Notes under the pieces: model-generated
What the model saw: the letters and a program-made list of their open reading frames with translations, nothing else
The model's database searches: none
What the model was told of the DNA's origin: nothing
Assembly: GCA_027310565.1 (NCBI GenBank)
Contig: DAIDAP010000007.1
Span: 62,001 to 126,000, forward strand
DNA length: 64,000 nt
Direction: 5' to 3'
Origin: Chloroflexota bacterium
GTDB taxonomy: Bacteria > Chloroflexota > Limnocylindria > P2-11E
Made by a program: the position numbers and the translations under genes
Shown: in pieces, positions 6,611 through 23,779 of the stretch
Layout of the letters: every line of letters begins with the position of its first letter
Numbering within the stretch: the first letter of the stretch is position 1

Positions 6611-6646
6611 AGTGTACCCATGAGCCTCTAGGATTTCGTGACGAAA
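6611..6646 (-). promoter_or_regulatory. Candidate clpP promoter with palindromic operator
   Basis: On the minus strand a TACACT -10-like hexamer (6616-6611) lies 30 bp before the clpP GTG. About 17 bp further upstream, the -35 position (CGAAAT) falls inside a perfect 13-bp palindrome, TTTCGTGACGAAA (6634-6646). A palindrome over the -35 position of clp genes suggests a regulator site. Which regulator cannot be told from the sequence. Confidence 0.4.
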
Positions 6647-6658
6647 GAGGGTTCGAGG

Positions 6659-9106
6659 GTGCGTCGGATCCCCGCGTCGCTGCTCGCGTACGTCGCCGCG
6701 TCGAGCCTGTATGCCGCGATCGTCTTCGTGATCGTCCACGCGACCTACGGGCTCGAGCTCGGGCGCTCCGGCATCCGCCTGCCCGACGCCGGGGCCCTCG
6801 TCGGGTCGATCGACGCCGTCGGGTTCGTCGTCTGGGTCGGTATCAGTCTCATCGCAGGGACGGTGCTGCACCGCCTCTCCCGGTCCCTCGAGGGCCTCCG
6901 CGGCGAGGGCGCCCAGCGCGAGTCCGCGATGGCCTCGGTGTTCGCGCTCGGCCAAGCGCTCTCGGGCTCGCTGGAGCTCGACGAGATCGCGGAGCGCTTC
7001 CTCACGTCGGCGCGCGCCTCGCTGGACCCGTCGGTGAGCGCCGCGGTCTACGTCCAGGACGACGCCTTCGGCGGCTACCGCCGGCTGCGCGAGCAGCGGG
7101 CCGGCGTCGGCCTGCTGGCCGCCGAGCGCTACACGACGACCGAGCTGCCGACGCCGATCCGGACGCGCGTCGTCGACCACCGGCAGGCCCTCGTGCTCCA
7201 CGACGTCGCGCTGAGCGACGCCTGGCCGTCGCTGCGCGGCGCCCTCGCCGACGCCGGGCCGGTGCGGTCGTTCGCGGCCGTGCCGCTCGTCGCGCACGAT
7301 CGCCTCGTCGGCATCGCGCTCTTCGCGAGCGACCGGCCCGACGCGCTCACGGCCGACCGGCTGCAGCTCACCACGCTCGTCACGCAGCTCGTCGCGGCGT
7401 CGATACGCACGGCGCTGTCGCTGCGCGAGGCCGAGTCGCGGGCGAACCGCGAGGCCGTCGTGAACCGCGTCGCGCAGCGGGCCCGTGCCACGCTCGACGC
7501 GGAACGCGTCCTGCGTTCCACGATCGACGAGCTGGCACGGACGCTTCCGGTCGTCCGCGTCCTCGCCGTCCTGGGGGCCCGGCCGGACGCGCTGCGCGCG
7601 GGGTACGAGACCGTCGCGGAGGGGGTCGCGCCCCTCGGGGCGGCAGCCGGCGCCCTCGAGGTCGCGCGGGCGGCGGCCCTCGCCGGCCGCACGACGACCC
7701 GCGCGGACGGCACGAGCGACATCGCGACGCCGATCGTCATCGGCGGCGAGCTCGCCGGCGCTCTCGCGCTGCAGGCGGATGAGGCGCACGACTGGAGCAC
7801 CGACGAGGTCCGGCTGCTCGAGGCCGTCGCCCGTGAGCTGCGCGTCGCGATGGAGGCGGCGCGGCTGTTCGAGGCGCGCCAGCGCGAGAACGAGCGGCTC
7901 GTCGCGCTCCAGCGCGCCTCGGCGGTGCTCGCGACGCGCTCGACGGCCCGCGAGGTCATCGACGAGATCCTGCACACGGCCGCCGACCTGCTCGGCGACG
8001 GCAGCGCGGCGCTGTACCGCTGGGACGAGGGCGGCGCGAGCCTCCGCCTCGCGCAGCAGGTCGACCCCGCGGGGCACCCGGTGAGCGCGGTGCTTCCGAC
8101 CGGCGACGGCATGTCCGGGGACCTGCTGCGGAAGCTCGAGCCGGTGATCGTGAACGACTACCCCTCCTGGCCCGGCGCGAGCGAGAACGGTCTCGCGACG
8201 GGCCTCCGCGCGGTGCTCGGCGTGCCGCTCCTGCGCGGCGGGCGCCTCGTCGGCGCGCTCGTCGTCCGCTCGTACCAGGAGGAGACACGGTTCGGCGCGG
8301 ACGAGGCGCGCCTGCTCACGCTCTTCGGCGACCAGGCGTCGGCCGCGCTCGCGAACGTCGAGGCATTCGAGCGGCAGCGCGCCGCCGTGGAGGAGCTCGA
8401 GCGCGTGAACCGGGCGAAGAGCGAGTTCGTCTCGATCGTCAGCCACGAGTTCCGCACCCCGCTCACCGGGATCCAGGGCTTCAGCGAGATGCTCCGCGAC
8501 GAGCGGCTCACGCCCGAGGAGGTGCGCGACTACGCGACGGACATCAACAAGGACGCGCAGCGTCTCGGCAGGATGATCAACGAGATGCTCGACCTCTCGC
8601 GCATGGAGTCCGGGCGCATGGAGCTGCGCCGCGAGACGGTCGACCTCGACGCGATCGTCGCCGAGGTCGTCGACCGGGTCCGTCCCAACGCGCCCGAGCA
8701 CCGCATCGCGCTCGCGCTCGAGGGCGGTCTGCCGCCGCTGGTCGGCGACCGCGACCGCATCACGCAGGTCGTCGCGAACCTGCTCAGCAACGCGGTGAAG
8801 TACTCACCGACCGGCGGGGCGATCGTCATCGAGACCCGTCGCGAGGCCGGCGCGGTCCACCTGCTCGTGCGCGACAGCGGCATCGGCATCGCGCCCGAGG
8901 CCCTCGAGACGATCTGGGAGCGCTACCAGCGCGTCGACTCGGACGCGACGCGCGGGATCCAGGGGAGCGGGCTCGGGCTCCCCATCGTGCGGCAGATCGT
9001 GGCGCTCCACGGGGGGCGGACCTGGGCCGAGAGCGAGCTCGGCCGCGGCTCGGTCTTCCACGTGACCCTGCCGCTTGCGGCGGGCGGGCGGCCGGTAGAG
9101 GCTTGA
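6659..9106 (+). CDS. Membrane histidine kinase with three GAF domains
   Basis: Sensor kinase of 815 residues. Two hydrophobic segments lie near residues 5-30 and 45-75. Three GAF-like domains follow (about 90-240, 250-395 and 405-575), then HisKA with the phospho-acceptor His in IVSHEFRTPLTG (about residue 596) and HATPase_c with VVANLLSNAVKYS, DSGIGIAPE and GSGLGLPIV. A GTG at 6638 is in frame, but the GTG at 6659 has GAGGG seven bases upstream and is preferred. It heads a four-gene operon whose other members all carry receiver domains. Confidence 0.93.
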   Translation: MRRIPASLLAYVAASSLYAAIVFVIVHATYGLELGRSGIRLPDAGALVGSIDAVGFVVWVGISLIAGTVLHRLSRSLEGLRGEGAQRESAMASVFALGQALSGSLELDEIAERFLTSARASLDPSVSAAVYVQDDAFGGYRRLREQRAGVGLLAAERYTTTELPTPIRTRVVDHRQALVLHDVALSDAWPSLRGALADAGPVRSFAAVPLVAHDRLVGIALFASDRPDALTADRLQLTTLVTQLVAASIRTALSLREAESRANREAVVNRVAQRARATLDAERVLRSTIDELARTLPVVRVLAVLGARPDALRAGYETVAEGVAPLGAAAGALEVARAAALAGRTTTRADGTSDIATPIVIGGELAGALALQADEAHDWSTDEVRLLEAVARELRVAMEAARLFEARQRENERLVALQRASAVLATRSTAREVIDEILHTAADLLGDGSAALYRWDEGGASLRLAQQVDPAGHPVSAVLPTGDGMSGDLLRKLEPVIVNDYPSWPGASENGLATGLRAVLGVPLLRGGRLVGALVVRSYQEETRFGADEARLLTLFGDQASAALANVEAFERQRAAVEELERVNRAKSEFVSIVSHEFRTPLTGIQGFSEMLRDERLTPEEVRDYATDINKDAQRLGRMINEMLDLSRMESGRMELRRETVDLDAIVAEVVDRVRPNAPEHRIALALEGGLPPLVGDRDRITQVVANLLSNAVKYSPTGGAIVIETRREAGAVHLLVRDSGIGIAPEALETIWERYQRVDSDATRGIQGSGLGLPIVRQIVALHGGRTWAESELGRGSVFHVTLPLAAGGRPVEA

Positions 9107-9111
9107 CCCGC

Positions 9112-9474
9112 ATGGGGACCGTCGCCTTCGTCGAGGACGACCCGACGATACGCAAGCTCGTCGGCGCGGCGCTGCGCACGACGGGGCACCAGGTCCATTT
9201 CGCGACGAACGGCAGGGAGGGTCTCGCGCTCGTCGAGCGCGTCCGCCCGGACGTCGTGTTCACCGACGTCGCGATGCCCGAGATGGACGGCCTCCAGCTG
9301 GCCGACGCGCTCCGCGCCCGTCCGGAGCTCGCGGGGATCCCGGTCGTGTTCGTGACGGCGTCGCTCCAGCGCGAGCAGATCGAGCGGTACAGGGCGCACG
9401 GCGCCGTGGCCTACCTCGCGAAGCCGTTCAGCACGGCCGAGCTGCGCGAGTGCGTCACGCGGTTCGTGCGATGA
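9112..9474 (+). CDS. Stand-alone response regulator receiver protein
   Basis: A single REC domain of 120 residues and nothing else. The acidic pair is in FVEDDPT, the phospho-acceptor is Asp52 in VFTDVAMPEMDG, the conserved Thr in FVTASL and the Lys in LAKPF. A TTG at 9103 is also in frame and overlaps the kinase stop. The ATG at 9112 has AGAGG at a better distance. Its stop overlaps the next start (ATGA). It is probably a CheY/Spo0F-like phosphate relay or output between the kinase and the two downstream receiver fusions. Confidence 0.9.
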   Translation: MGTVAFVEDDPTIRKLVGAALRTTGHQVHFATNGREGLALVERVRPDVVFTDVAMPEMDGLQLADALRARPELAGIPVVFVTASLQREQIERYRAHGAVAYLAKPFSTAELRECVTRFVR

Positions 9475-10610
9475 GCGACCGCATCCTGTTCGTCGACGAC
9501 GAGCCGCAGATCCGCAAGCTCCTCTCGACGTACTTCCAGCGGCAGGGCTACGAGGTCGACCTCGCCACCGACGGCTACGAGGCGCTGCGGATGATCCGCA
9601 CGAGCCCGCCCGACCTGGTCATCACCGACGTCGGCATGCCGAACCTGAACGGCTACGACCTCACGCGCCGGCTCCGCTCCGACCATCGCACCGCGCGCAT
9701 CCCGATCGTGATGCTCTCCGCGCGCAAGCAGGCGGAGGACATCCTCACCGGCTACGCCGAGGGCGCCGACGAGTACGTCGCCAAGCCCGTCGAGATGGCC
9801 GTCCTCGCGGCGAAGGTCGACGTCCTGCTCAAGCGTCTGGGCGCGACCGGCGGCGAGGCGGTCGGGCGCCGCGGGCACGTCGTGCTGTTCCTCCACGGCA
9901 AGGGCGGCTGCGGCGCGACGACGCTCGCGGTGAACGCGGCCGTCGCGCTCGCGGAGACGAAGATCTACCGCGTCGCGCTCCTCGACCTGGACCTCGAGTT
10001 CGCCAACGCGCACATGCAGCTCGACCTGCGCCCCGCGCACACCCTCGCCGAGCTCGCGGGCACCGACCCGGCGACGCTCGACGACGACCACTTCCAGGAC
10101 TACATGACCATGGACCGCAGCGGGGTACAGGTCGTGACCGCCTCCGACGCGCCCGAGCGGGCCGAGCTCATCACCGTCCCGCTCGTCCAGCGCGCGCTCG
10201 AACGGCTCCGCGGCGCCGCCGACTACGTCGTCGTGGACACGCCGACGGCGTTCACCCAGCCGGTGCTGGCGGCGTACGACGTCGCCGACGCCGTCATCCT
10301 GGTGACCGAGCCGCATCTGGCGTCGATGTTCGCGACCCGGCAGTGCCTCGCGGTCCTCGAGTCGCTCGGCTACCCGAAGGAGCGCACCCTCCTGGTGCTC
10401 AACCGCCGGACGCAGGCCGGCGTGGAGACCGACCAGGCCGCCCGCTTCTTCAACCGCAAGCCCGACCTCGTCGTACCGTTCACACCCGTGTTCGACGAGT
10501 CCGCCGACCGCGGCCGTCCGCTCGTCGTCGTGCGGGCGGACAACGCCGCCGCGAACGTGATGCGCGACCTGGCGGCACAGATCACCGTGCTCGCTCCGGC
10601 GGGTCGCTGA
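9471..10610 (+). CDS. REC-ParA fusion, CpaE/TadZ-like
   Basis: 379 residues. The N-terminal receiver (residues 1-120) has Asp53 in VITDVGMPNLNG, MLSARK and VAKPVE. A ParA/MinD-type ATPase (about 140-379) has the deviant Walker A KGGCGATTLA, ALLDLDLEFAN and VVVDTPTAFTQP. This is the architecture of CpaE/TadZ proteins, which place Tad pilus machinery at a cell pole. No tadA, tadB, tadC or cpaB is adjacent, but Tad-type pseudopilin genes occur at about 45.3-48.0 kb. It starts at the ATG overlapping the previous stop. The receiver links its ATPase to the kinase at the head of the operon. Confidence 0.9.
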   Translation: MSDRILFVDDEPQIRKLLSTYFQRQGYEVDLATDGYEALRMIRTSPPDLVITDVGMPNLNGYDLTRRLRSDHRTARIPIVMLSARKQAEDILTGYAEGADEYVAKPVEMAVLAAKVDVLLKRLGATGGEAVGRRGHVVLFLHGKGGCGATTLAVNAAVALAETKIYRVALLDLDLEFANAHMQLDLRPAHTLAELAGTDPATLDDDHFQDYMTMDRSGVQVVTASDAPERAELITVPLVQRALERLRGAADYVVVDTPTAFTQPVLAAYDVADAVILVTEPHLASMFATRQCLAVLESLGYPKERTLLVLNRRTQAGVETDQAARFFNRKPDLVVPFTPVFDESADRGRPLVVVRADNAAANVMRDLAAQITVLAPAGR

Positions 10611-10611
10611 C

Positions 10612-11937
10612 ATTCGCATCCGCTTCTGGGGCACGCGCGGCTCGATCGCGGCGGCGGGACCCGAGACGCTCCGCTACGGCGGGAACACGCCCTGCGTCGA
10701 GGTCACGGGCGACGACGGCACGCTCCTCATCTTCGACTGCGGCACCGGCGCGCGGAAGCTCGGCCTCGCCCTCGCCTCCAGGGGCGCCGTCCGCGGGCAC
10801 CTCCTCCTCTCCCACACGCACGGCGACCACATCCAGGGGCTGCCCTTCTTCCTGCCCGCGTTCACGCCGGGGTCCCACCTCACGATCTACGGACCGGCCG
10901 GCGTCGACCGCTCGCTCCCGCAGGCCGTCGGCGGCTCGATGGACTACGCGTACTTCCCGGTCCCGCTCTCGTCGCTGCCCGCGCGGTTCGACTTCGTCGA
11001 GCTCGACGAGACCGACTTCACCATCGGCGGCGCGCGGCTGCGCACCCGCTTCCTGAACCACACCGCCCCCTGCATCGGCTACCGCGTCGAGATCGGCGCG
11101 GCCGTCTTCGTGTACGCGACCGACCACGAGGCGCACGCCCCGCAGCCGTGGCGCGCGGACCGTCCGCTCGGCTCGTTCGATCCACGGCACCTCGCGCACG
11201 CGGGCGATCTGCGCCACAGCGAGCTCCTGCGGGGCGCCGACGTCGTGGTGCACGACGCGCAGTACGCCGGCCGGGACCTCGCGGCCAAGACCGGCTGGGG
11301 ACACAGCACGGTGGAGTACGCCGTCGACATGGCGCTCGCGTCCACGGTGAGGACGCTCGTCCTCTTCCACCACGACCCCAATCGCGACGACGCCGGGGTC
11401 GGCGAGCTCGTCGCGGCGGCGGAGGCCCGCGTCGCCGCGTCCGGCCTGCCGCTCCGCGTCATCGCCGCGGCGGAGGGCGAGGAGCTGGTGCTCGACGAGG
11501 GCGCCGCGCGGCCGCCGATCACGCTCGAGCCGGCGGCGCCCGCGCTGCCGCGTCGCGCGCGGATTCTCGTCGCGGACGACGACATCGCGCTCGTGCGCAT
11601 CCTCGAGACGGTGCTGCACGGCGACGGGTACGACGTCGAGCCGGCGTACGACGGCGAGGACGCCGTCGCGAAGGCGATCGCGACGGCCTACGACCTGGTG
11701 CTCATGGACATCCAGATGCCGCACAAGGACGGGCTCACCGCCTGTCGCGAGCTGCGCGCGACCGAGCGCTACCGGAGCACGCCGTTCATCGTGCTCACCG
11801 CACGCACGCGCCAGGAGGACATGGCCGAGGCCTTCGCGGCCGGCTACACCGACTACATCCGCAAGCCGTTCGCCCTCCCGCAGGTGCGCGCGCGGCTGCG
11901 CTCGTGGCTCGCGCGCGGCGCCGCACGGCAGGTGTGA
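10612..11937 (+). CDS. Metallo-beta-lactamase-fold hydrolase fused to a receiver domain, apparent ATT start
   Basis: 441 residues. The N-terminal MBL domain (about 1-290) has RIRFWGTRGS, the metal site SHTHGDHIQG, YATDHEAH and FHHDPNRDD. The C-terminal receiver (about 315-435) has VADDD, Asp366 in LMDIQMPHKDG, VLTART and IRKPF. The paralogue at 19155-19985 begins MRIRFWGTRGS. Here the corresponding codons are ATT CGC ATC CGC TTC, so the gene appears to start at ATT, one base after the previous stop. The first ATG (10939) would delete the metal site. The MBL domain may be a phosphodiesterase or nuclease-like hydrolase whose activity is set by phosphorylation. The substrate is unknown. Confidence 0.85.
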   Translation: MRIRFWGTRGSIAAAGPETLRYGGNTPCVEVTGDDGTLLIFDCGTGARKLGLALASRGAVRGHLLLSHTHGDHIQGLPFFLPAFTPGSHLTIYGPAGVDRSLPQAVGGSMDYAYFPVPLSSLPARFDFVELDETDFTIGGARLRTRFLNHTAPCIGYRVEIGAAVFVYATDHEAHAPQPWRADRPLGSFDPRHLAHAGDLRHSELLRGADVVVHDAQYAGRDLAAKTGWGHSTVEYAVDMALASTVRTLVLFHHDPNRDDAGVGELVAAAEARVAASGLPLRVIAAAEGEELVLDEGAARPPITLEPAAPALPRRARILVADDDIALVRILETVLHGDGYDVEPAYDGEDAVAKAIATAYDLVLMDIQMPHKDGLTACRELRATERYRSTPFIVLTARTRQEDMAEAFAAGYTDYIRKPFALPQVRARLRSWLARGAARQV

Positions 11938-17002: not shown

Positions 17003-17956
17003 ATGGGGGCGCGCGTGCTCGTCGTCGACGACGACGACGCCGTCCGCGAGGCCGTCGTCATGGCCCTGTCCGACGCCGGCTACGAGTGCCTCGCCGCCGC
17101 GGACGGACACCAGGCGCTGGTGATCGCGCGGGGCGGACGCATCGACCTCGTCGTCCTGGACATCAAGATGCCGCTCGTCTCCGGCGACGACGTGCAGCGC
17201 GAGCTCCGCCGCGATCCGCGCACGCGGTTCGTGCCGGTCGTGTTCCTCACCGGGCAGCGCTCGTCGCGCGACATCGCGCTGCGGCTCATGCGCGGCGCCG
17301 ACGACTACGTCACGAAGCCGTTCGACATGGACGAGCTCGTCGCGCGCGCGGCCGCGGTGCTGCGGCGCGGCGCCGAGCTCCGCGCGCTCAACCCGCTCTC
17401 GGGGCTCCCCGGGAACGTCGCGATCGCCGCCGAGCTCGAGCGCCACCTCGAGGCCGACGACGAGTTCGCGTGCCTGTACTGCGACCTCGACCACTTCAAG
17501 GAGTTCAACGACACGCAGGGGTTCGCGCGCGGCGACGCGCTCATCAAGGCGCTCGCCGACCTGCTCGTCGAGGTCGCGGGCCCGTCGCCGGAGGCCTTCG
17601 CCGGCCACGTCGGCGGGGACGACTTCGTGCTCGTCGTGCCGGGTCACGCGGCGGAGGAGGTGGCGCGGGCGATCGTGCGTCGCTTCGACGCGCTCGCGCC
17701 GTCGATGTACGACGACGCCGACCGGGCCCGCGGCTGCGTGGTCACGCTCGACCGCCGGGGCCGCGAGCGGCGCATCCCGTTCGTCACCGTCTCGATCGGC
17801 GTCGTGCCGATCTCGACGCGGCACGCGGCGGACGCCGTGGCGCTGTCGCGCACCGCCGCCGAGGTGAAAGAGATCGCGAAGCGCCGCGACGGATCGAGCT
17901 GGGCGCTCGACCGACGGCAGGCACGCGCGAACGAGGCGGCCGGCTCCCTCCGCTGA
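17003..17956 (+). CDS. Response regulator with variant GGDEF domain (REC-GGDDF)
   Basis: 317 residues. The receiver (1-120) has VVDDDD, Asp53 in VVLDIKMPLVSG, FLTGQR and VTKPFD. A diguanylate-cyclase-like domain (about 130-300) has LYCDLDHFKEFND and VTVSIGVVP, but the signature reads VGGDDFVLV, with Asp in place of Glu. No RxxD inhibitory site precedes it. Activity as a cyclase is uncertain, and it could be a c-di-GMP or GTP sensor. It stands alone, with no kinase next to it. The ATG at 17003 matches the usual REC start. Confidence 0.9.
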   Translation: MGARVLVVDDDDAVREAVVMALSDAGYECLAAADGHQALVIARGGRIDLVVLDIKMPLVSGDDVQRELRRDPRTRFVPVVFLTGQRSSRDIALRLMRGADDYVTKPFDMDELVARAAAVLRRGAELRALNPLSGLPGNVAIAAELERHLEADDEFACLYCDLDHFKEFNDTQGFARGDALIKALADLLVEVAGPSPEAFAGHVGGDDFVLVVPGHAAEEVARAIVRRFDALAPSMYDDADRARGCVVTLDRRGRERRIPFVTVSIGVVPISTRHAADAVALSRTAAEVKEIAKRRDGSSWALDRRQARANEAAGSLR

Positions 17957-19154: not shown

Positions 19155-19985
19155 CTACACCTCGAGCTCGAGCCCCTCGCGCGCCACGACGACCTCGAGA
19201 CCGCTCGTCCGCTCGCCTGCCGCGCGCTGCGCGTCGGCGCCGATCCGGTCGAGCGCGTCGTCGCTGCGGTCGGGGTCGTGGTGGTACAGCACGAGCCGCC
19301 GCACGCCGGCCGTCGCGGCGACCTCGATCGCCGCGTCCACCGTCGCATGTCCCCAGGTGGGCTTGAAGTCGCTCGGCAGGAACTGCGCGTCGTGGATGAG
19401 CGTGTGCGCGCCCCGCGCGAGCGGGACGACCGGGTTCGGTTTGCCGCTGAAGGCGTCCTCGGTGTCGGTCGCGTAGACGAGCGCGCGGCCGTCGGCCTCG
19501 ACACGGTACGCGAGCGCGGGGGCGGGGTGGAAGATGTGCGTCGAGCGGACGCGGTACGGCCCGAGCCGCTGCTCGGACCCCTCGGCCATCTCGCCGATCT
19601 CGAGCCGGGCCGGGAGGTCGTCCAGGTCGACCGGGAAGAACGGGTCGTCCATGCCCAGGCCGAGGAGCTCCCTCATCGAGCGCGACTGCTTCGGCCCGAT
19701 GATGCGGAACGTGCTGCGCTTGTCGTAGGCGGGGCGGAAGAACGGGATGCCCTGGATGTGGTCCCAGTGGAGGTGCGAGAGCAGCAGCGTGACGTCGAAC
19801 GGACGCGCGCCGTTCGTGCTCATGAGGTTGATGCCGAGCTCGCGCAGCCCGGTGCCCGCGTCGAGGACCAGGAGCGACCCGCTCGCGTCGCGCACCTCGA
19901 CGCACGCGGTGTTGCCGCCGTACCGGACCGTCGTCGGACCGGGCGTCGGGATGGAGCCGCGCGTGCCCCAGAAGCGGATGCGCAT
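19155..19985 (-). CDS. MBL-fold metallohydrolase
   Basis: 276 residues, beginning MRIRFWGTRGSIPTPG. The metal-binding motif is SHLHWDHIQG, with YATDTEDAF and YHHDPDRSDD as later ligands. It is a paralogue of the N-terminal half of the MBL-REC protein at 10612-11937. The family includes RNase Z-like and cyclic nucleotide phosphodiesterase enzymes. It is the last gene of an operon with an adenylate cyclase and an HD-GYP protein (its ATG overlaps the HD-GYP stop), so a role in cyclic nucleotide turnover is a reasonable but untested idea. Confidence 0.88.
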   Translation of the reverse strand: MRIRFWGTRGSIPTPGPTTVRYGGNTACVEVRDASGSLLVLDAGTGLRELGINLMSTNGARPFDVTLLLSHLHWDHIQGIPFFRPAYDKRSTFRIIGPKQSRSMRELLGLGMDDPFFPVDLDDLPARLEIGEMAEGSEQRLGPYRVRSTHIFHPAPALAYRVEADGRALVYATDTEDAFSGKPNPVVPLARGAHTLIHDAQFLPSDFKPTWGHATVDAAIEVAATAGVRRLVLYHHDPDRSDDALDRIGADAQRAAGERTSGLEVVVAREGLELEV

Positions 19986-21295
19986 CAGGGCTTCGCCTCG
20001 CTCGAGGGTGAGCCGCTCGCCGCTCGATCTCTCTCCGACAGACCCCCGGCGGCCTCCTGGATGCTGCCCATGCCCTCGTCGCCCGGCTTCGGCCAGGTGT
20101 GGCGGAGCTGGTCGATGGTCCGCTGCAGCTCGGGCAGCGCACGGTGGACGGCGGCCAGCACCTCGGGGTCGAGGTGGCTCCCGGCCATCCCGGCCATGAT
20201 CTCGAGCGTCTTCCCCAGCGGGTAGGCCGGCTTGTAGTAGCGCGGAGCGGTGAGGGCGTCGAAGACGTCCGCCGCCGCCACGATGCGCGCCCCGAGGAGG
20301 ATCTGGTCCGCGGCCAACCCGTTCGGATAGCCGGTGCCGTCCATCCGCTCGTGGTGCTGCGCCGCGATGAGCGGCACCTCGCGCATGTCGTGCGGGAACT
20401 CCAGGTGCGCGAGGAACTCGCCGGTCTTCTCGGCGTGTGCCTTCATGTACGCGAACTCGGCGTCGTCGAGCTTCCCCGGCTTCTGCAGGAAGCGGTCCCG
20501 CACCGCGATCTTCCCGTAGTCGTGCAGCAGCGCGGCGGCCTCGAGCCGCTCGAGGTCCCGCTCGCCCAGGCCCATCGCCCGGCCGATCACCGCCGCGTAG
20601 CGGGTGACCCGCTGGCTGTGGCCGGCGGTCTGCTGGTCGCGCGCGTCGATGGTCACCGCGAGCGTCTCGATGAGCGACTGCCAGAGCCGCCGTTGCTCGG
20701 CGACGAGCTGCGCGTTCTCCACGGCCACGGCCGCCGACGCGGCGAGCGACGCGAGCGTCTCCTCGTCGGTCCGCACGAAGGGCCCGCCGCCGCGCTTGTT
20801 CACGACCTGGAAGACGCCGATCACCCGGCCGCCCTCGCCGGTCATCGGGAACGTGAGCAGGCTCTTCGTGCGGTAGCCGCTCGCGCGGTCCGGCTCGGGG
20901 TTGAAGCGAGCGTCCTGGTAGGCGTCGGGGATGTTGATCGTCTCGCCGGTCTGCGCGACCGCCCCGGCGATGCCACGCCCGATCGGGAAGCGGATCTCCC
21001 CGCTGCCGAGCGCCACGCGCGACCAGAGCTCGCCCCGGTCGCGGTCGACGATGAAGATGGTCGCGCGGTCGGCGGCGAGGAGCGTGGCGGTCGCCTCGGC
21101 CATCCGGCGGAGCAGCGCGTCGAGGTCGGTGATCGACATGAGCTGCCGCGTGATGTCGAGGATCGTGTCGAGCCGCGCGCCGGCGCCGCGGCGTTCGCCC
21201 GCCCGCCGCTCGGCGACGCGCCGCTCGCGGCCGCCCGGCGGCGGCCCGCCGCTCGTCCGGCGCTGGGCGACACGCCGGTCGGGCCTGGAGCTCAT
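19985..21295 (-). CDS. GAF-HD-GYP phosphodiesterase
   Basis: 436 residues. An Arg-rich, probably disordered N-terminus (1-45) precedes one GAF domain (about 50-205) and an HD-GYP domain (about 215-400) with TAGHSQRVTRYA, LLHDYGKIAV and HHERMDGTGYPNG, all predicted catalytic residues present. It should hydrolyse c-di-GMP when its GAF domain is in the right state. The start is the ATG ending at 21295, which overlaps the stop of the preceding GAF gene (ATGA). Confidence 0.93.
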   Translation of the reverse strand: MSSRPDRRVAQRRTSGGPPPGGRERRVAERRAGERRGAGARLDTILDITRQLMSITDLDALLRRMAEATATLLAADRATIFIVDRDRGELWSRVALGSGEIRFPIGRGIAGAVAQTGETINIPDAYQDARFNPEPDRASGYRTKSLLTFPMTGEGGRVIGVFQVVNKRGGGPFVRTDEETLASLAASAAVAVENAQLVAEQRRLWQSLIETLAVTIDARDQQTAGHSQRVTRYAAVIGRAMGLGERDLERLEAAALLHDYGKIAVRDRFLQKPGKLDDAEFAYMKAHAEKTGEFLAHLEFPHDMREVPLIAAQHHERMDGTGYPNGLAADQILLGARIVAAADVFDALTAPRYYKPAYPLGKTLEIMAGMAGSHLDPEVLAAVHRALPELQRTIDQLRHTWPKPGDEGMGSIQEAAGGLSERDRAASGSPSSEAKP

Positions 21296-21783
21296 TCCGA
21301 CGCGAGCTTCTCGAGGACCGGCGCCACCGTCTCCGCGACCTGCTCGAGGAGCATCTGATCGCGGCGCTCGAACGTCCCGTCGCGCTTGTTCAGCGCCTGG
21401 ATGACGCCGACGGTCTGACCGCCCTTGCCCCACACCGGGACGCAGAGCATGTTCAGGGTGCGGAAGCCCGTCCGCAGGTCGACGTTGCGGTCGAAGCGCG
21501 AATCGGCGTACGCGTCGGGCACGTTGATCGTCTCGCCGGTGAGCGCGGCCTGCCCCGCGAGCCCCTGGCCGATGGGGAGCCGTATCTCGGTCGCGGTGCG
21601 CTGCGCCACGCGCGCCCAGAGCTGGTTCCTGTGGTGATCCACCACGTAGACCGTGCAGCGCTCGGCGTCGACCGCCTGCGAGCAGAGGTCCACCAGCCCG
21701 CGCAGGTACGCCTCGCGGTCCTTCTGCACCGAGAGGTGACCGAGCTTCACCATGATCAGGGCGACCTTCTCGTCGAGCACCAT
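21292..21783 (-). CDS. Single GAF-domain protein
   Basis: 163 residues, almost all one GAF domain. CTVYVVDHHRNQLWARVAQ, LPIGQGLAGQAALTGETI and NVPDAYADSRFD match the GAF domains found in cyclic nucleotide phosphodiesterases and in the neighbouring HD-GYP protein. It could be a free sensor subunit that binds a cyclic nucleotide or other ligand. Its start follows the adenylate cyclase stop by 4 bp, and its stop overlaps the HD-GYP start. Confidence 0.88.
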   Translation of the reverse strand: MVLDEKVALIMVKLGHLSVQKDREAYLRGLVDLCSQAVDAERCTVYVVDHHRNQLWARVAQRTATEIRLPIGQGLAGQAALTGETINVPDAYADSRFDRNVDLRTGFRTLNMLCVPVWGKGGQTVGVIQALNKRDGTFERRDQMLLEQVAETVAPVLEKLASE

Positions 21784-21787
21784 CGTG

Positions 21788-23779
21788 TCAGTGGTACCCC
21801 GCCACGGCCGCCTTCGTGACCTGGAGCTGCGGGGGCGGCGCCGGGTTCGGGTTGACGATCTCCCCGGCACGGTTGACCTGGTAGCAGCGCACCGGCTCGG
21901 CGCGGCCCTTCACCGCGATGGCGCCGAGGTCGACGCTCTCGACGTCGTCTCCGAGCAGCGCGAGCGTCTCCGCGCTGCAGGCGACCTGGTCGCGGCGCGC
22001 GATGTCCGACGAGGTGAGGCGCGAGGCGACGTTCGCGGTGTCGCCGATGACCGTGTACTCCATACGGCCCTTCGCGCCGAGGAACCCCGCGACCACCTGG
22101 CCGCTGTTGATGCCGAAGCCGAACGACACGTCCGGCCCGCCCCCGGCGCGCTCGGACTGGATCCAGCGCTGCATCTCGAGCGCGCACTCCACGGCGCGCC
22201 GCGCGTGCCGCGGCACCTCGATCGGGGCGTTCCAGATGACCATGATGTTGTCGCCGTTGTACTTGTTCACCGTGCCGTCGAAGCGGTTCACGACGTCGAC
22301 CATGCCGTCGAAGTAGCGGTTCAGGTGGCCGAGGAGGTCCGCCGGGGTCATCCCCTCGGACATCGTCGTGAACCCGCGGATGTCGCCGAAGAGCACGGTG
22401 ACCTCGCGACCCTCGCCGCCGAGGCCGAGCTGGCCCGCCTCCTCCTTCTCGAGGATGGTGCGCGCGACCGACGGCGTCACGAAGCGGCCGAAGGTGCTCT
22501 GCGTGCGCGTCACGGCGCGCCGCTCCTCGACCAGCAGGTAGCCGAGCGAGACGACCCACCAGAACGCGGACGGCGCGACGTAGCCGATCGACGGCACCTC
22601 GACCGGCCCCGTCCCGACGTCGCCCTGCGTCTGCAGCGCGAACAGCACGTAGCCGCCGACGACGTAGAGCGCGAGCACGCCGAGCGCCGAGAGGAAGCCG
22701 CGCAGGTGCCAGCGGACGACGAGGAAGAGCCCGAGGGCGGTGACGACGAGGACGGCGAGGAGCGTGGTGAGGAACCCCTGCCTGAGGACGGGGTAGCGGT
22801 TGGTGAAGATCGACTGCGCGGTGTTCGCCCAGATCTCGACGCCGAACATCTTCGCGCCGCCGCTGTTCGGCACCGGGTAGTCGTCGGGGACCGCCGACAC
22901 GGAGTGGAAGCCGACGAAGACGGTGCGGCCGGTGATCAGGCTCGACGGGATCTTCCCGTCGATGACGTCCTGCATCGAGACGACGCAGAACTCTCCGGCG
23001 ATGGAGCAGGGCGGGCCCGAGCGCTGGTCGACGGTGGGCGTGGCCGGTGCGGACGCGTAGTAGACCGGCATGCCGCCGCGCTGGTTGACCGGCAGCACGC
23101 GGTCGCCGAGCGGCGCCGGGATGCGCAGACGGTCGTTCGCCAGCGTGGCCTTCGTGAGGTCCGCGCGCACCTGCCGAGCGGCCGCGAGCAGCGCGAGCGA
23201 GTAGTACCGGGTGCCGTCGGGGCCTTCGATGAGCATCTGGCTGTCGCGCACGCGGCCGTCGGGGTCCGCCGCGACGTTCACCGATCCGACGCCGGCCGCG
23301 GCCGCGCGGAGGTCGGGCGGCGGCAGGTTCACCGTCCGGTAGACCGTGGTGTGATCGCCGACCGTGCCCGTGCCGGCGCCCTGCATCGCGAGGATGACGT
23401 TCCCCGCGCGGCTCACCGCCCCCGCGAGGACCGCGTCGTCCACCGCGCTCGGCGAGCGGTCGTAGAAGCTCACGTCGAAGGCGATCGTCGTCGGCCTGTC
23501 GGCGGCGAGCCGGTCGATGAGCTGGGCGTAGGCGCGGCGCGGCAGCGGGTAGACGTTCTGCGCGCGGATGGTGAGGTCGTCGACGGCGACGATCGTGATC
23601 TGGTTCTTCACCTTCGCCGGGGAGATCGCGATGCCCCGGTCGTACACCGCGGCCTGCAGCGTCGTGTCGAGGAGCTCGGTCAAGTACGCGAGCGCGCCGA
23701 AGAGCACCGCGATGCCCGCGATGAGCGCGAGGACCGCGCGCTGCCGCGTCTGGCGCTTCGCGAACACCGTCCCGAACAC
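21788..23779 (-). CDS. CHASE2-domain adenylate/guanylate cyclase
   Basis: 663 residues. One N-terminal membrane segment (about 15-35), an extracytoplasmic CHASE2 domain (about 40-330), three more membrane segments (about 340-420) and a C-terminal class III cyclase domain (about 455-650). The cyclase has VLFGDIRGFTTMSEG and KYNGDNIMVIWNAP for metal binding and GRMEYTVIGDTANVASRL for the transition-state region. It is most likely an adenylate cyclase that converts ATP to cAMP in response to an external signal. It is the first gene of a four-gene operon with GAF, HD-GYP and MBL proteins. Confidence 0.94.
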   Translation of the reverse strand: MFGTVFAKRQTRQRAVLALIAGIAVLFGALAYLTELLDTTLQAAVYDRGIAISPAKVKNQITIVAVDDLTIRAQNVYPLPRRAYAQLIDRLAADRPTTIAFDVSFYDRSPSAVDDAVLAGAVSRAGNVILAMQGAGTGTVGDHTTVYRTVNLPPPDLRAAAAGVGSVNVAADPDGRVRDSQMLIEGPDGTRYYSLALLAAARQVRADLTKATLANDRLRIPAPLGDRVLPVNQRGGMPVYYASAPATPTVDQRSGPPCSIAGEFCVVSMQDVIDGKIPSSLITGRTVFVGFHSVSAVPDDYPVPNSGGAKMFGVEIWANTAQSIFTNRYPVLRQGFLTTLLAVLVVTALGLFLVVRWHLRGFLSALGVLALYVVGGYVLFALQTQGDVGTGPVEVPSIGYVAPSAFWWVVSLGYLLVEERRAVTRTQSTFGRFVTPSVARTILEKEEAGQLGLGGEGREVTVLFGDIRGFTTMSEGMTPADLLGHLNRYFDGMVDVVNRFDGTVNKYNGDNIMVIWNAPIEVPRHARRAVECALEMQRWIQSERAGGGPDVSFGFGINSGQVVAGFLGAKGRMEYTVIGDTANVASRLTSSDIARRDQVACSAETLALLGDDVESVDLGAIAVKGRAEPVRCYQVNRAGEIVNPNPAPPPQLQVTKAAVAGYH

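What the first reader, a model, noticed from the sequence alone, without database searches (positions are those of the whole stretch)
19155..23779. Operon joining cAMP synthesis, GAF sensing, c-di-GMP hydrolysis and an MBL hydrolase
CHASE2-cyclase, a free GAF protein, GAF-HD-GYP and MBL are coupled by 1- to 4-bp overlaps or gaps. The GAF segments of the two middle proteins are similar (LPIG.G.AG..A.TGETIN.PDAY). Inferred: cAMP made by the first enzyme could be read by the GAF domains to control c-di-GMP removal, with the MBL enzyme removing the cAMP signal.
Basis: inference. Interest (0 to 1): 0.52.

Follow-up and report, generated by a model that had tools for sequence, protein, structure and literature searches.

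The report
cAMP-to-c-di-GMP relay operon in Chloroflexota
Four tightly packed bacterial genes look like a small complete circuit that makes the messenger cAMP, senses it, uses it to control destruction of a second messenger (c-di-GMP), and probably erases the cAMP again; each part resembles something known, but the package has not been tested.

Summary
In detail: minus-strand genes for a CHASE2 class III cyclase, a free GAF protein, a GAF-HD-GYP and a metallo-beta-lactamase-fold (MBL) hydrolase, joined by a 4-bp gap, a 4-bp and a 1-bp overlap. Order is conserved: of 22 genomes of the order with a full free-GAF orthologue, all 22 keep GAF, HD-GYP, MBL, and 20 of 21 testable have the cyclase in front. 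In a sister family the flanks differ, the order stays, and HD-GYP and MBL are fused. Both GAF domains are of the cyclic-nucleotide type (best PDB hit: cAMP-binding CyaB2) and keep its main cAMP contacts in 21 of 21 sequences each. A cAMP-activated GAF-HD-GYP (Tlr0485) is already known. The MBL as cAMP eraser is inferred: in 400 Chloroflexota genomes its family occurs in 141, all with a class III cyclase, and in 0 of 62 with HD-GYP but no cyclase; 6 of 60 relatives carry cNMP-binding domains. Against: 15 relatives sit beside HD-GYPs without a cAMP-type GAF, and the fold fits RNase Z equally. Nothing was assayed. New variant of a known kind.

The parts
21788..23779 (-). CHASE2 + transmembrane + class III (adenylyl-type) cyclase, 663 aa, GTG start
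   Evidence: Pfam CHASE2 3.4e-40, Guanylate_cyc 1e-25; best PDB hits cyanobacterial adenylate cyclases 6fht, 2w01; D466 K506 D510 D580 N583 R587 present in 17 of 17 operon cyclases aligned (the roles of these positions are recalled)
21292..21783 (-). free single-GAF protein, 163 aa
   Evidence: Pfam GAF 6.5e-20; best PDB hit CyaB2 1ykd 135 bits, best hit outside the cNMP-GAF group and PmGH 27.8 bits; R42, T44, D102 invariant in 20 of 20; model pLDDT 91.5
19985..21295 (-). GAF-HD-GYP, predicted c-di-GMP phosphodiesterase, 436 aa
   Evidence: Pfam GAF 8.9e-22, HD_5 8.5e-40; best PDB hits PmGH 4mcw 176 bits and CyaB2 1ykd 171 bits; HD, HHExxDGxGYP and ADxFDALT motifs in 18 of 18 operon proteins
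19155..19985 (-). MBL-fold hydrolase (Lactamase_B_2), 276 aa, predicted phosphodiesterase
   Evidence: Pfam 2.8e-19; NCBIfam cyclic nucleotide-degrading phosphodiesterase 67.5 bits against a cut-off of 400, RNase Z 64 bits; SHLHWDH metal motif at residues 70-76, invariant in 18 rows; model pLDDT 85.9

Best explanation
A self-contained relay between two second messengers. The membrane CHASE2 cyclase makes cAMP in response to an extracytoplasmic signal (inferred). cAMP binds the CyaB2-type GAF domains of the GAF-HD-GYP enzyme, and of the free GAF protein, which probably acts as a cAMP-binding partner or buffer (inferred). Binding changes, most likely raises as in Tlr0485, hydrolysis of c-di-GMP by the HD-GYP domain (inferred). 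The MBL enzyme, translated last and fused to the HD-GYP in a sister family, hydrolyses cAMP and resets the switch (inferred; the weakest step). Shown here: gene layout and conservation, family membership of the domains, conservation of catalytic and ligand-contact residues, the HD-GYP-MBL fusion, and the co-occurrence of the MBL family with class III cyclases. My step-wise estimates: GAFs bind cAMP 0.75; HD-GYP hydrolyses c-di-GMP 0.85; MBL hydrolyses cAMP or another cyclic mononucleotide 0.5.
For: Conserved order: 22 of 29 genomes of the order have a free-GAF match over 200 bits (10 of 10 genomes at least 90% complete and at most 5% contaminated have a match at E <= 1e-30); in all 22 HD-GYP and MBL follow it on the same strand, and the cyclase precedes it in 20 of 21 testable (in G018 the contig ends). 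GAF class: the free GAF scores 135 bits to CyaB2, 96 to PDE2A, 90 to PDE10A and to PmGH, 78 to PDE5, then 27.8 to the next GAF; HD-GYP GAF likewise. CyaB2 GAFb contacts R291, T293, I308, D356 (PMC4411481, passages) map to R42, T44, V59, D102 and R77, T79, V94, D136; R, T and D are kept in 21 of 21 free and 21 of 21 operon HD-GYP GAFs. Precedents: Tlr0485 GAF-HD-GYP and Lcd1 GAF-GGDEF are cAMP-activated. MBL: 141 of 141 MBL-positive genomes have a class III cyclase; among HD-GYP-positive genomes the MBL is in 140 of 249 with a cyclase and 0 of 62 without; 6 of 60 relatives outside the order are fused to cNMP-binding domains, 3 of these also to GGDEF and 1 to a Crp helix-turn-helix; one lies directly after a class III cyclase. 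Dictyostelium GbpA and GbpB are MBL plus cNMP-binding cyclic-nucleotide phosphodiesterases (PMC11988041, passages). Sister family G028: GAF-HD-GYP-MBL in one reading frame with no ATG, GTG or TTG at the MBL start.
Against: No binding or enzyme assay. Free GAF has NKF..DQ instead of the full NKFDE motif (Q143 invariant). Isolated CyaB2 GAFb binds cAMP and cGMP (PMC4411481), so specificity is open. G006 keeps GAF, HD-GYP and MBL but has no cyclase at the locus. The own genome has 7 class III cyclase matches and 10 cNMP-binding matches, so the circuit cannot be private unless it is local. In one distant family (f22) 15 loci couple MBL with a GAF-HD-GYP whose GAF lacks the arginine (ADGASLW in 15 of 15) and with no cyclase within 2.5 kb. 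The MBL scores RNase Z almost as well and its fold matches RNase Z first. Co-occurrence is confounded by shared descent and genome size; I checked only that the 62 cyclase-free genomes span 31 families and that 31 of them are 2.5 Mb or larger.
Confidence: 0.5

Rival explanations
1. Same cAMP-controlled HD-GYP, but the MBL acts on the c-di-GMP side: it finishes the breakdown of pGpG or a related short nucleotide released by HD-GYP, instead of cAMP.
For: HD-GYP and MBL are fused in G028 and adjacent in 15 of 62 loci of a distant family whose GAF is not of the cAMP type and that have no cyclase near; the MBL is fused to GGDEF in 3 of 60 relatives; its fold is that of RNase Z/RNase J-type nucleases.
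Against: 0 of 62 genomes with HD-GYP but no class III cyclase have the MBL, whereas 1 MBL-positive genome (G066) lacks HD-GYP; L178 is MBL-cNMP-binding-Crp helix-turn-helix without any c-di-GMP domain; PmGH, the closest solved GAF-HD-GYP, itself goes on to GMP (PMC4159591, passages), so a helper is not needed there.
Confidence: 0.25
2. The GAF domains bind cGMP or another small ligand; the neighbouring cyclase makes cGMP or only senses through CHASE2, and the operon is a loosely coupled set of signalling genes.
For: Isolated GAFb of CyaB2 binds both cAMP and cGMP (PMC4411481, abstract and passages); the fold comparison of the free GAF also ranks non-nucleotide GAFs high (ptsP GAF 3ci6 Z 21.0); GAF families bind many ligands.
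Against: Lysine 506 and aspartate 580 at the base-recognition positions point to ATP (assignment recalled); R and T of the cAMP pocket are invariant; sequence scores separate cNMP-type GAFs from the rest by about 50 bits, PmGH apart, whose ligand is not known to me.
Confidence: 0.2
3. The MBL is a housekeeping or unrelated hydrolase (tRNase Z, PhnP-like, sulfatase-like) that merely shares the operon.
For: NCBIfam scores for RNase Z (64 bits) are close to the cyclic-nucleotide phosphodiesterase family (67.5 bits), both far below cut-off; RNase Z and YhfI structures tie at Z about 25.
Against: Fusions with REC (11 of 60), cNMP-binding (6), GGDEF (3) domains and HD-GYP mark it as a signalling enzyme; it is absent from 259 of 400 Chloroflexota genomes, unlike a housekeeping tRNase; a stretch of roughly 40 residues of RNase Z has no counterpart.
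Confidence: 0.05

Closest known systems
Tlr0485 of Thermosynechococcus (cAMP-activated GAF-HD-GYP c-di-GMP phosphodiesterase; known to me from review PMC8846402, passages)
   Same: GAF of the cAMP class fused to HD-GYP; same predicted logic, cAMP raises c-di-GMP hydrolysis
   Different: Here the enzyme is one gene of a conserved operon with its own cyclase, a second free GAF protein and an MBL hydrolase; no data on gene context of Tlr0485 were seen
CyaB1/CyaB2 of Anabaena (GAF-GAF-PAS-adenylyl cyclase)
   Same: cAMP-contact residues and GAF class; cyclase and cAMP-reading GAF work together
   Different: There GAFs sit on the cyclase and give self-activation; here they are on separate proteins and point to c-di-GMP
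PmGH of Persephonella (GAF-HD-GYP, 4mcw)
   Same: Same two-domain architecture, best PDB match of the HD-GYP protein
   Different: Serine in place of the CyaB2 threonine (R-A-S); the passages I read name no GAF ligand
Rv1339 / CpdA / YhfI, atypical class II phosphodiesterases (PMC9293780, passages)
   Same: MBL fold, [T/S]HXHXDH motif (SHLHWDH here), RNase Z relationship, structure match to YhfI Z 25
   Different: Only 67.5 bits to the NCBIfam model against a cut-off of 400; the motif is shared with RNase Z, so it does not discriminate
Dictyostelium GbpA and GbpB (MBL plus two cNMP-binding domains; PMC11988041, passages)
   Same: MBL catalytic domain tied to cyclic-nucleotide sensors, as in 6 of 60 Chloroflexota relatives
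   Different: Eukaryotic, sensor in the same chain; no sequence comparison could be made here
Bd1971 of Bdellovibrio (cNMP-binding-EAL) and Lcd1 of Leptospira (GAF-GGDEF)
   Same: cAMP reading domain controls c-di-GMP turnover
   Different: Other sensor or output domain; no operon with cyclase and MBL was described in the passages I read

Membership tests
Cyclic-nucleotide-binding GAF domains (CyaB/PDE type) | Sequence groups with CyaB2 and PDE GAFs apart from other GAFs | tested here: met
   135 bits to CyaB2, 96-78 to PDE2/10/5, 27.8 to the next GAF other than PmGH; three GAFs of a histidine kinase in the same window give no such hit among the 60 of 69 rows shown
Cyclic-nucleotide-binding GAF domains (CyaB/PDE type) | cAMP contact residues R291, T293, I308, D356, N359 of CyaB2 | tested here: met
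   R, T, D in 21 of 21 free and 21 of 21 operon HD-GYP GAFs, I replaced by V (rarely I kept); N359 is T or S in all (water-mediated contact)
Cyclic-nucleotide-binding GAF domains (CyaB/PDE type) | NKFDE motif | tested here: inconclusive
   HD-GYP GAF keeps it in 20 of 21 (one Q); free GAF has NKFDQ in 21 of 21
Cyclic-nucleotide-binding GAF domains (CyaB/PDE type) | Binds cAMP or cGMP | not testable with these tools
   needs protein
cAMP-activated GAF-HD-GYP (Tlr0485 type) | GAF of cAMP class fused to catalytically intact HD-GYP | tested here: met
cAMP-activated GAF-HD-GYP (Tlr0485 type) | cAMP raises c-di-GMP hydrolysis | not testable with these tools
   needs enzyme assay
Class III adenylyl cyclase with CHASE2 | CHASE2 domain and the metal, adenine and transition-state residues | tested here: met
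   Pfam; D, K, D, D, N, R at 466, 506, 510, 580, 583, 587 in 17 of 17; residue roles recalled
Atypical class II cyclic-nucleotide phosphodiesterase (Rv1339/CpdA/YhfI) | [T/S]HXHXDH motif and Lactamase_B_2 fold | tested here: met
   SHLHWDH; PF12706; YhfI Z 25.1 over 233 residues, rmsd 2.8; shared with RNase Z
Atypical class II cyclic-nucleotide phosphodiesterase (Rv1339/CpdA/YhfI) | NCBIfam NF041851 score at or above the curated cut-off of 400 bits | tested here: not met
   67.5 bits; so not filed as a member of that family
Atypical class II cyclic-nucleotide phosphodiesterase (Rv1339/CpdA/YhfI) | Hydrolyses cAMP | not testable with these tools
   needs enzyme assay
RNase Z | NCBIfam RNase Z models at or above cut-off (292.95 for TIGR02651) | tested here: not met
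   64 bits; a stretch of roughly 40 residues of B. subtilis RNase Z has no counterpart (that this is the tRNA-binding arm is recalled)

The most novel reading that the evidence does not exclude
The MBL is the founding example of a Chloroflexota-wide class of cAMP phosphodiesterases that follows class III cyclases from genome to genome and is plugged into c-di-GMP machinery in several ways (operon with or fusion to HD-GYP, fusion to cNMP-binding-GGDEF, to REC, to Crp-type regulators), and in this operon, with the free GAF as a trans-acting cAMP subunit of the GAF-HD-GYP, it forms a complete write-read-convert-erase module that turns a cAMP pulse into a timed drop of c-di-GMP.
Probability: 0.35. 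Interest if true: 0.68.

Novelty: new variant of a known kind. Interest (0 to 1): 0.5.

Why it matters
cAMP control of c-di-GMP turnover is known from single proteins (Tlr0485, Lcd1, Bd1971). A four-gene module that holds synthesis, sensing, conversion and probably removal together would let the whole relay be rebuilt in a laboratory host and its dynamics measured. The MBL family would also give a candidate for the cAMP-degrading enzyme of Chloroflexota, a phylum for whose cAMP/c-di-GMP link my one combined paper search (terms Chloroflexi, c-di-GMP, cAMP, adenylate cyclase: 3 papers, none on this by title) found no study.

Tried and rejected
Free GAF and HD-GYP GAF as a recent duplication or as the two halves of a split tandem GAF: in a FastTree of 123 GAF domains each forms its own clade at support 1.0, not sisters; deep branches are weak (0.58 or less near the base), and the free GAF falls nearest GAF-SpoIIE proteins. 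So a split tandem is neither shown nor excluded.

Fold comparison as proof of cAMP binding: rejected, since non-nucleotide GAFs score as high as PDE GAFs.

Operon elsewhere: of 60 loci outside the order that carry a related GAF (L103-L162), none has a P0004-like MBL (tblastn E <= 1e-6) in the up to 6 kb fetched on each side; many contigs there are short. The GAFs sit in class III cyclases, HD-GYPs, SpoIIE phosphatases or histidine kinases.

cAMP as a private signal of the operon: rejected, since the genome has other cyclases and cNMP-binding proteins.

Paper searches: 10 used. The search for MBL + cyclic nucleotide-binding domain + phosphodiesterase + GGDEF found 0 papers; HD-GYP + cAMP + CHASE2 + c-di-GMP found 2, neither on such an operon by title; GAF domain + cAMP + HD-GYP + c-di-GMP + adenylate cyclase found 7. 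Only open-licence PubMed Central papers are searched. The Tlr0485 and Lcd1 papers themselves were not read, only the review passages.

An error of mine: in alignment A4 the row for the window's second MBL was given one base out of frame (window 10611); it matched no family. The domain tallies are therefore of 60 relatives outside the order, plus P0004; the paralogue was rescanned in frame. Two of 62 loci (L185, L195) were left out of that tally because the reading frame has a stop. The 62 loci are a part of the matches outside the order listed, taken mostly from the top of its list.
Full report
What is there. On the minus strand four genes follow one another almost without spacing: CHASE2 class III cyclase (23779..21788), free GAF protein (21783..21292), GAF-HD-GYP (21295..19985) and an MBL-fold hydrolase (19985..19155), with a 4-bp gap, an ATGA overlap and a 1-bp overlap. 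The cyclase has the expected catalytic residues (D466, K506, D510, D580, N583, R587, in 17 of 17 operon cyclases; roles recalled), and HD, HHExxDGxGYP and ADxFDALT are present in 18 of 18 operon HD-GYP proteins. The unit may be co-transcribed with an upstream M20 peptidase gene ending about 40 bp before the cyclase.

Conservation. In the 29 held genomes of the order, 22 have a free-GAF match over 200 bits, including all 10 genomes that are at least 90% complete and at most 5% contaminated. Named relatives are Chloroflexota metagenome-assembled genomes. In all 22, HD-GYP and MBL follow on the same strand; the cyclase precedes in 20 of 21 where the contig allows a look. GAF and HD-GYP genes overlap by 1 or 4 bp in 18 of 22 loci by my automatic start choice. 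Exceptions: G006 has no cyclase at the locus, its M20 gene lies directly before the GAF gene; G008 has an IS481-type transposase gene inserted between cyclase and GAF. Flanking aldehyde dehydrogenase and M20 genes are shared by 20 of 21 loci compared, so synteny within the family alone would not single out the four genes; but in G028, the one held genome of a sister family, the flanks differ while the four modules stay in order, and there HD-GYP and MBL are one open reading frame with no start codon at the MBL start. That is one genome, an assembled one.

The GAF domains. The free GAF's best PDB match is the cAMP-bound tandem GAF of Anabaena CyaB2 (135 bits), followed by PDE2A (96), PDE10A (90), PmGH (90) and PDE5 (78); the next GAF outside this group reaches 27.8 bits. 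The HD-GYP protein's GAF part behaves alike. A histidine kinase with three GAFs in the same window shows no such match among the 60 of 69 rows displayed, most of them kinase-domain hits. CyaB2 GAFb contacts to cAMP are R291, T293, I308, D356 and, through water, N359 (PMC4411481, passages). They map to R42, T44, V59, D102, T105 of the free GAF and R77, T79, V94, D136, S139 of the HD-GYP protein. Across 21 free and 21 operon HD-GYP GAFs, R, T and D never change (automatic labels opfree and opoth together are the 21 free ones). Related GAFs outside the order sit mostly in class III cyclases, HD-GYPs, SpoIIE phosphatases and histidine kinases. Against a simple reading, the free GAF has NKFDQ for NKFDE in 21 of 21. 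The AlphaFold2 model of the free GAF (pLDDT 91.5) matches PDE5A GAF (Z 21.3), PmGH (20.9), PDE2A (19.7), PDE10A (18.9), CyaB2 (17.9), Lcd1 with cAMP (17.3), but also a ptsP GAF (21.0), so the fold does not decide.

The MBL. It scores 67.5 bits to the NCBIfam cyclic-nucleotide phosphodiesterase family and 64 bits to RNase Z, both far below cut-off. Its model (pLDDT 85.9) matches RNase Z (Z 25.8) and YhfI (25.1) equally, and yeast PDE1 (20.6); Foldseek also lists the Apyc1 phosphodiesterase. YhfI and the MBL phosphodiesterase Rv1339 are grouped as atypical class II phosphodiesterases in PMC9293780 (passages). Fold and motif thus give a phosphodiesterase but not the substrate.

Genome comparison says more. 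In 400 Chloroflexota genomes the MBL family (E <= 1e-25) is in 141, class III cyclases in 277, HD-GYP in 311. All 141 MBL-positive genomes have a cyclase; 140 of 141 have an HD-GYP. Among HD-GYP-positive genomes the MBL is in 140 of 249 with a cyclase and 0 of 62 without. Those 62 span 31 families, and 31 of the 62 are 2.5 Mb or larger. No correction for relatedness was made, so the Fisher p of 7e-30 for MBL against cyclase is not a fair probability. In 60 relatives outside the order, 11 carry REC, 6 cNMP-binding (L169, L171, L172, L173, L178, L218), 3 also GGDEF (L169, L172, L173), 1 a Crp helix-turn-helix (L178). L170 lies directly after a class III cyclase. Dictyostelium GbpA and GbpB, MBL enzymes with cNMP-binding domains, are cyclic-nucleotide phosphodiesterases (PMC11988041, passages). 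On the other side, 15 of 62 loci, all of one family (f22), have a GAF-HD-GYP just upstream of the MBL, with ADGASLW where the cAMP class has D-R-x-T (15 of 15), and no cyclase detected nearby, although those genomes have cyclases elsewhere. So the MBL is tied both to cyclic mononucleotides and to HD-GYP; I favour cAMP, at about 0.5, over pGpG, at about 0.25.

How it most likely works. Cyclase makes cAMP; GAFs read it; HD-GYP lowers c-di-GMP; MBL removes cAMP. The cAMP to HD-GYP step has a direct precedent in Tlr0485, reported as cAMP-activated (review PMC8846402, passages). The free GAF may be a partner subunit, a buffer, or an adaptor to another protein; nothing here decides. The missing cyclase in G006 fits a reader module that can also use cAMP from elsewhere: that genome has 28 cyclase matches.

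Verdict. Each part is of a known kind; the package and the MBL family's link to cyclases are the new points.

Noticed in passing
window 10612-11937 +, with 6638-9106 + and 9450-10610 +: A second MBL of the same family, fused to a receiver domain, lies downstream of a three-GAF histidine kinase and a receiver-ParA-like ATPase protein.
   Followed up: partly
window 17003-17956 +: REC-GGDEF response regulator facing the operon's downstream side; its signature reads GGDDF instead of GGDEF.
   Followed up: no
L169, L172, L173, L178, L171, L218: MBL-cNMP-binding fusions in Chloroflexota, some continuing into GGDEF or a Crp-type helix-turn-helix: candidates for cAMP-sensing proteins with their own cAMP hydrolase.
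   Followed up: partly
L188, L196, L197, L201, L203-L207, L209-L211, L213-L215: In one other Chloroflexota family a GAF-HD-GYP with a different GAF and an insertion inside the HD-GYP region directly precedes the MBL.
   Followed up: partly
L104, L105, L106, L107, L116, L121, L123, L149: CyaB2-like GAFs joined to SpoIIE phosphatases, mostly in Acidobacteriota-type metagenome genomes; in L104 and L116 a weak class III cyclase match lies just downstream.
   Followed up: no
L081:1876-3060 - (own genome, contig 15): Histidine kinase (HisKA_3) with a GAF of the same class as the free GAF.
   Followed up: no
L088:4934-5905 -: IS481-type transposase gene inserted between cyclase and GAF gene in G008, which may uncouple their transcription.
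   Followed up: yes
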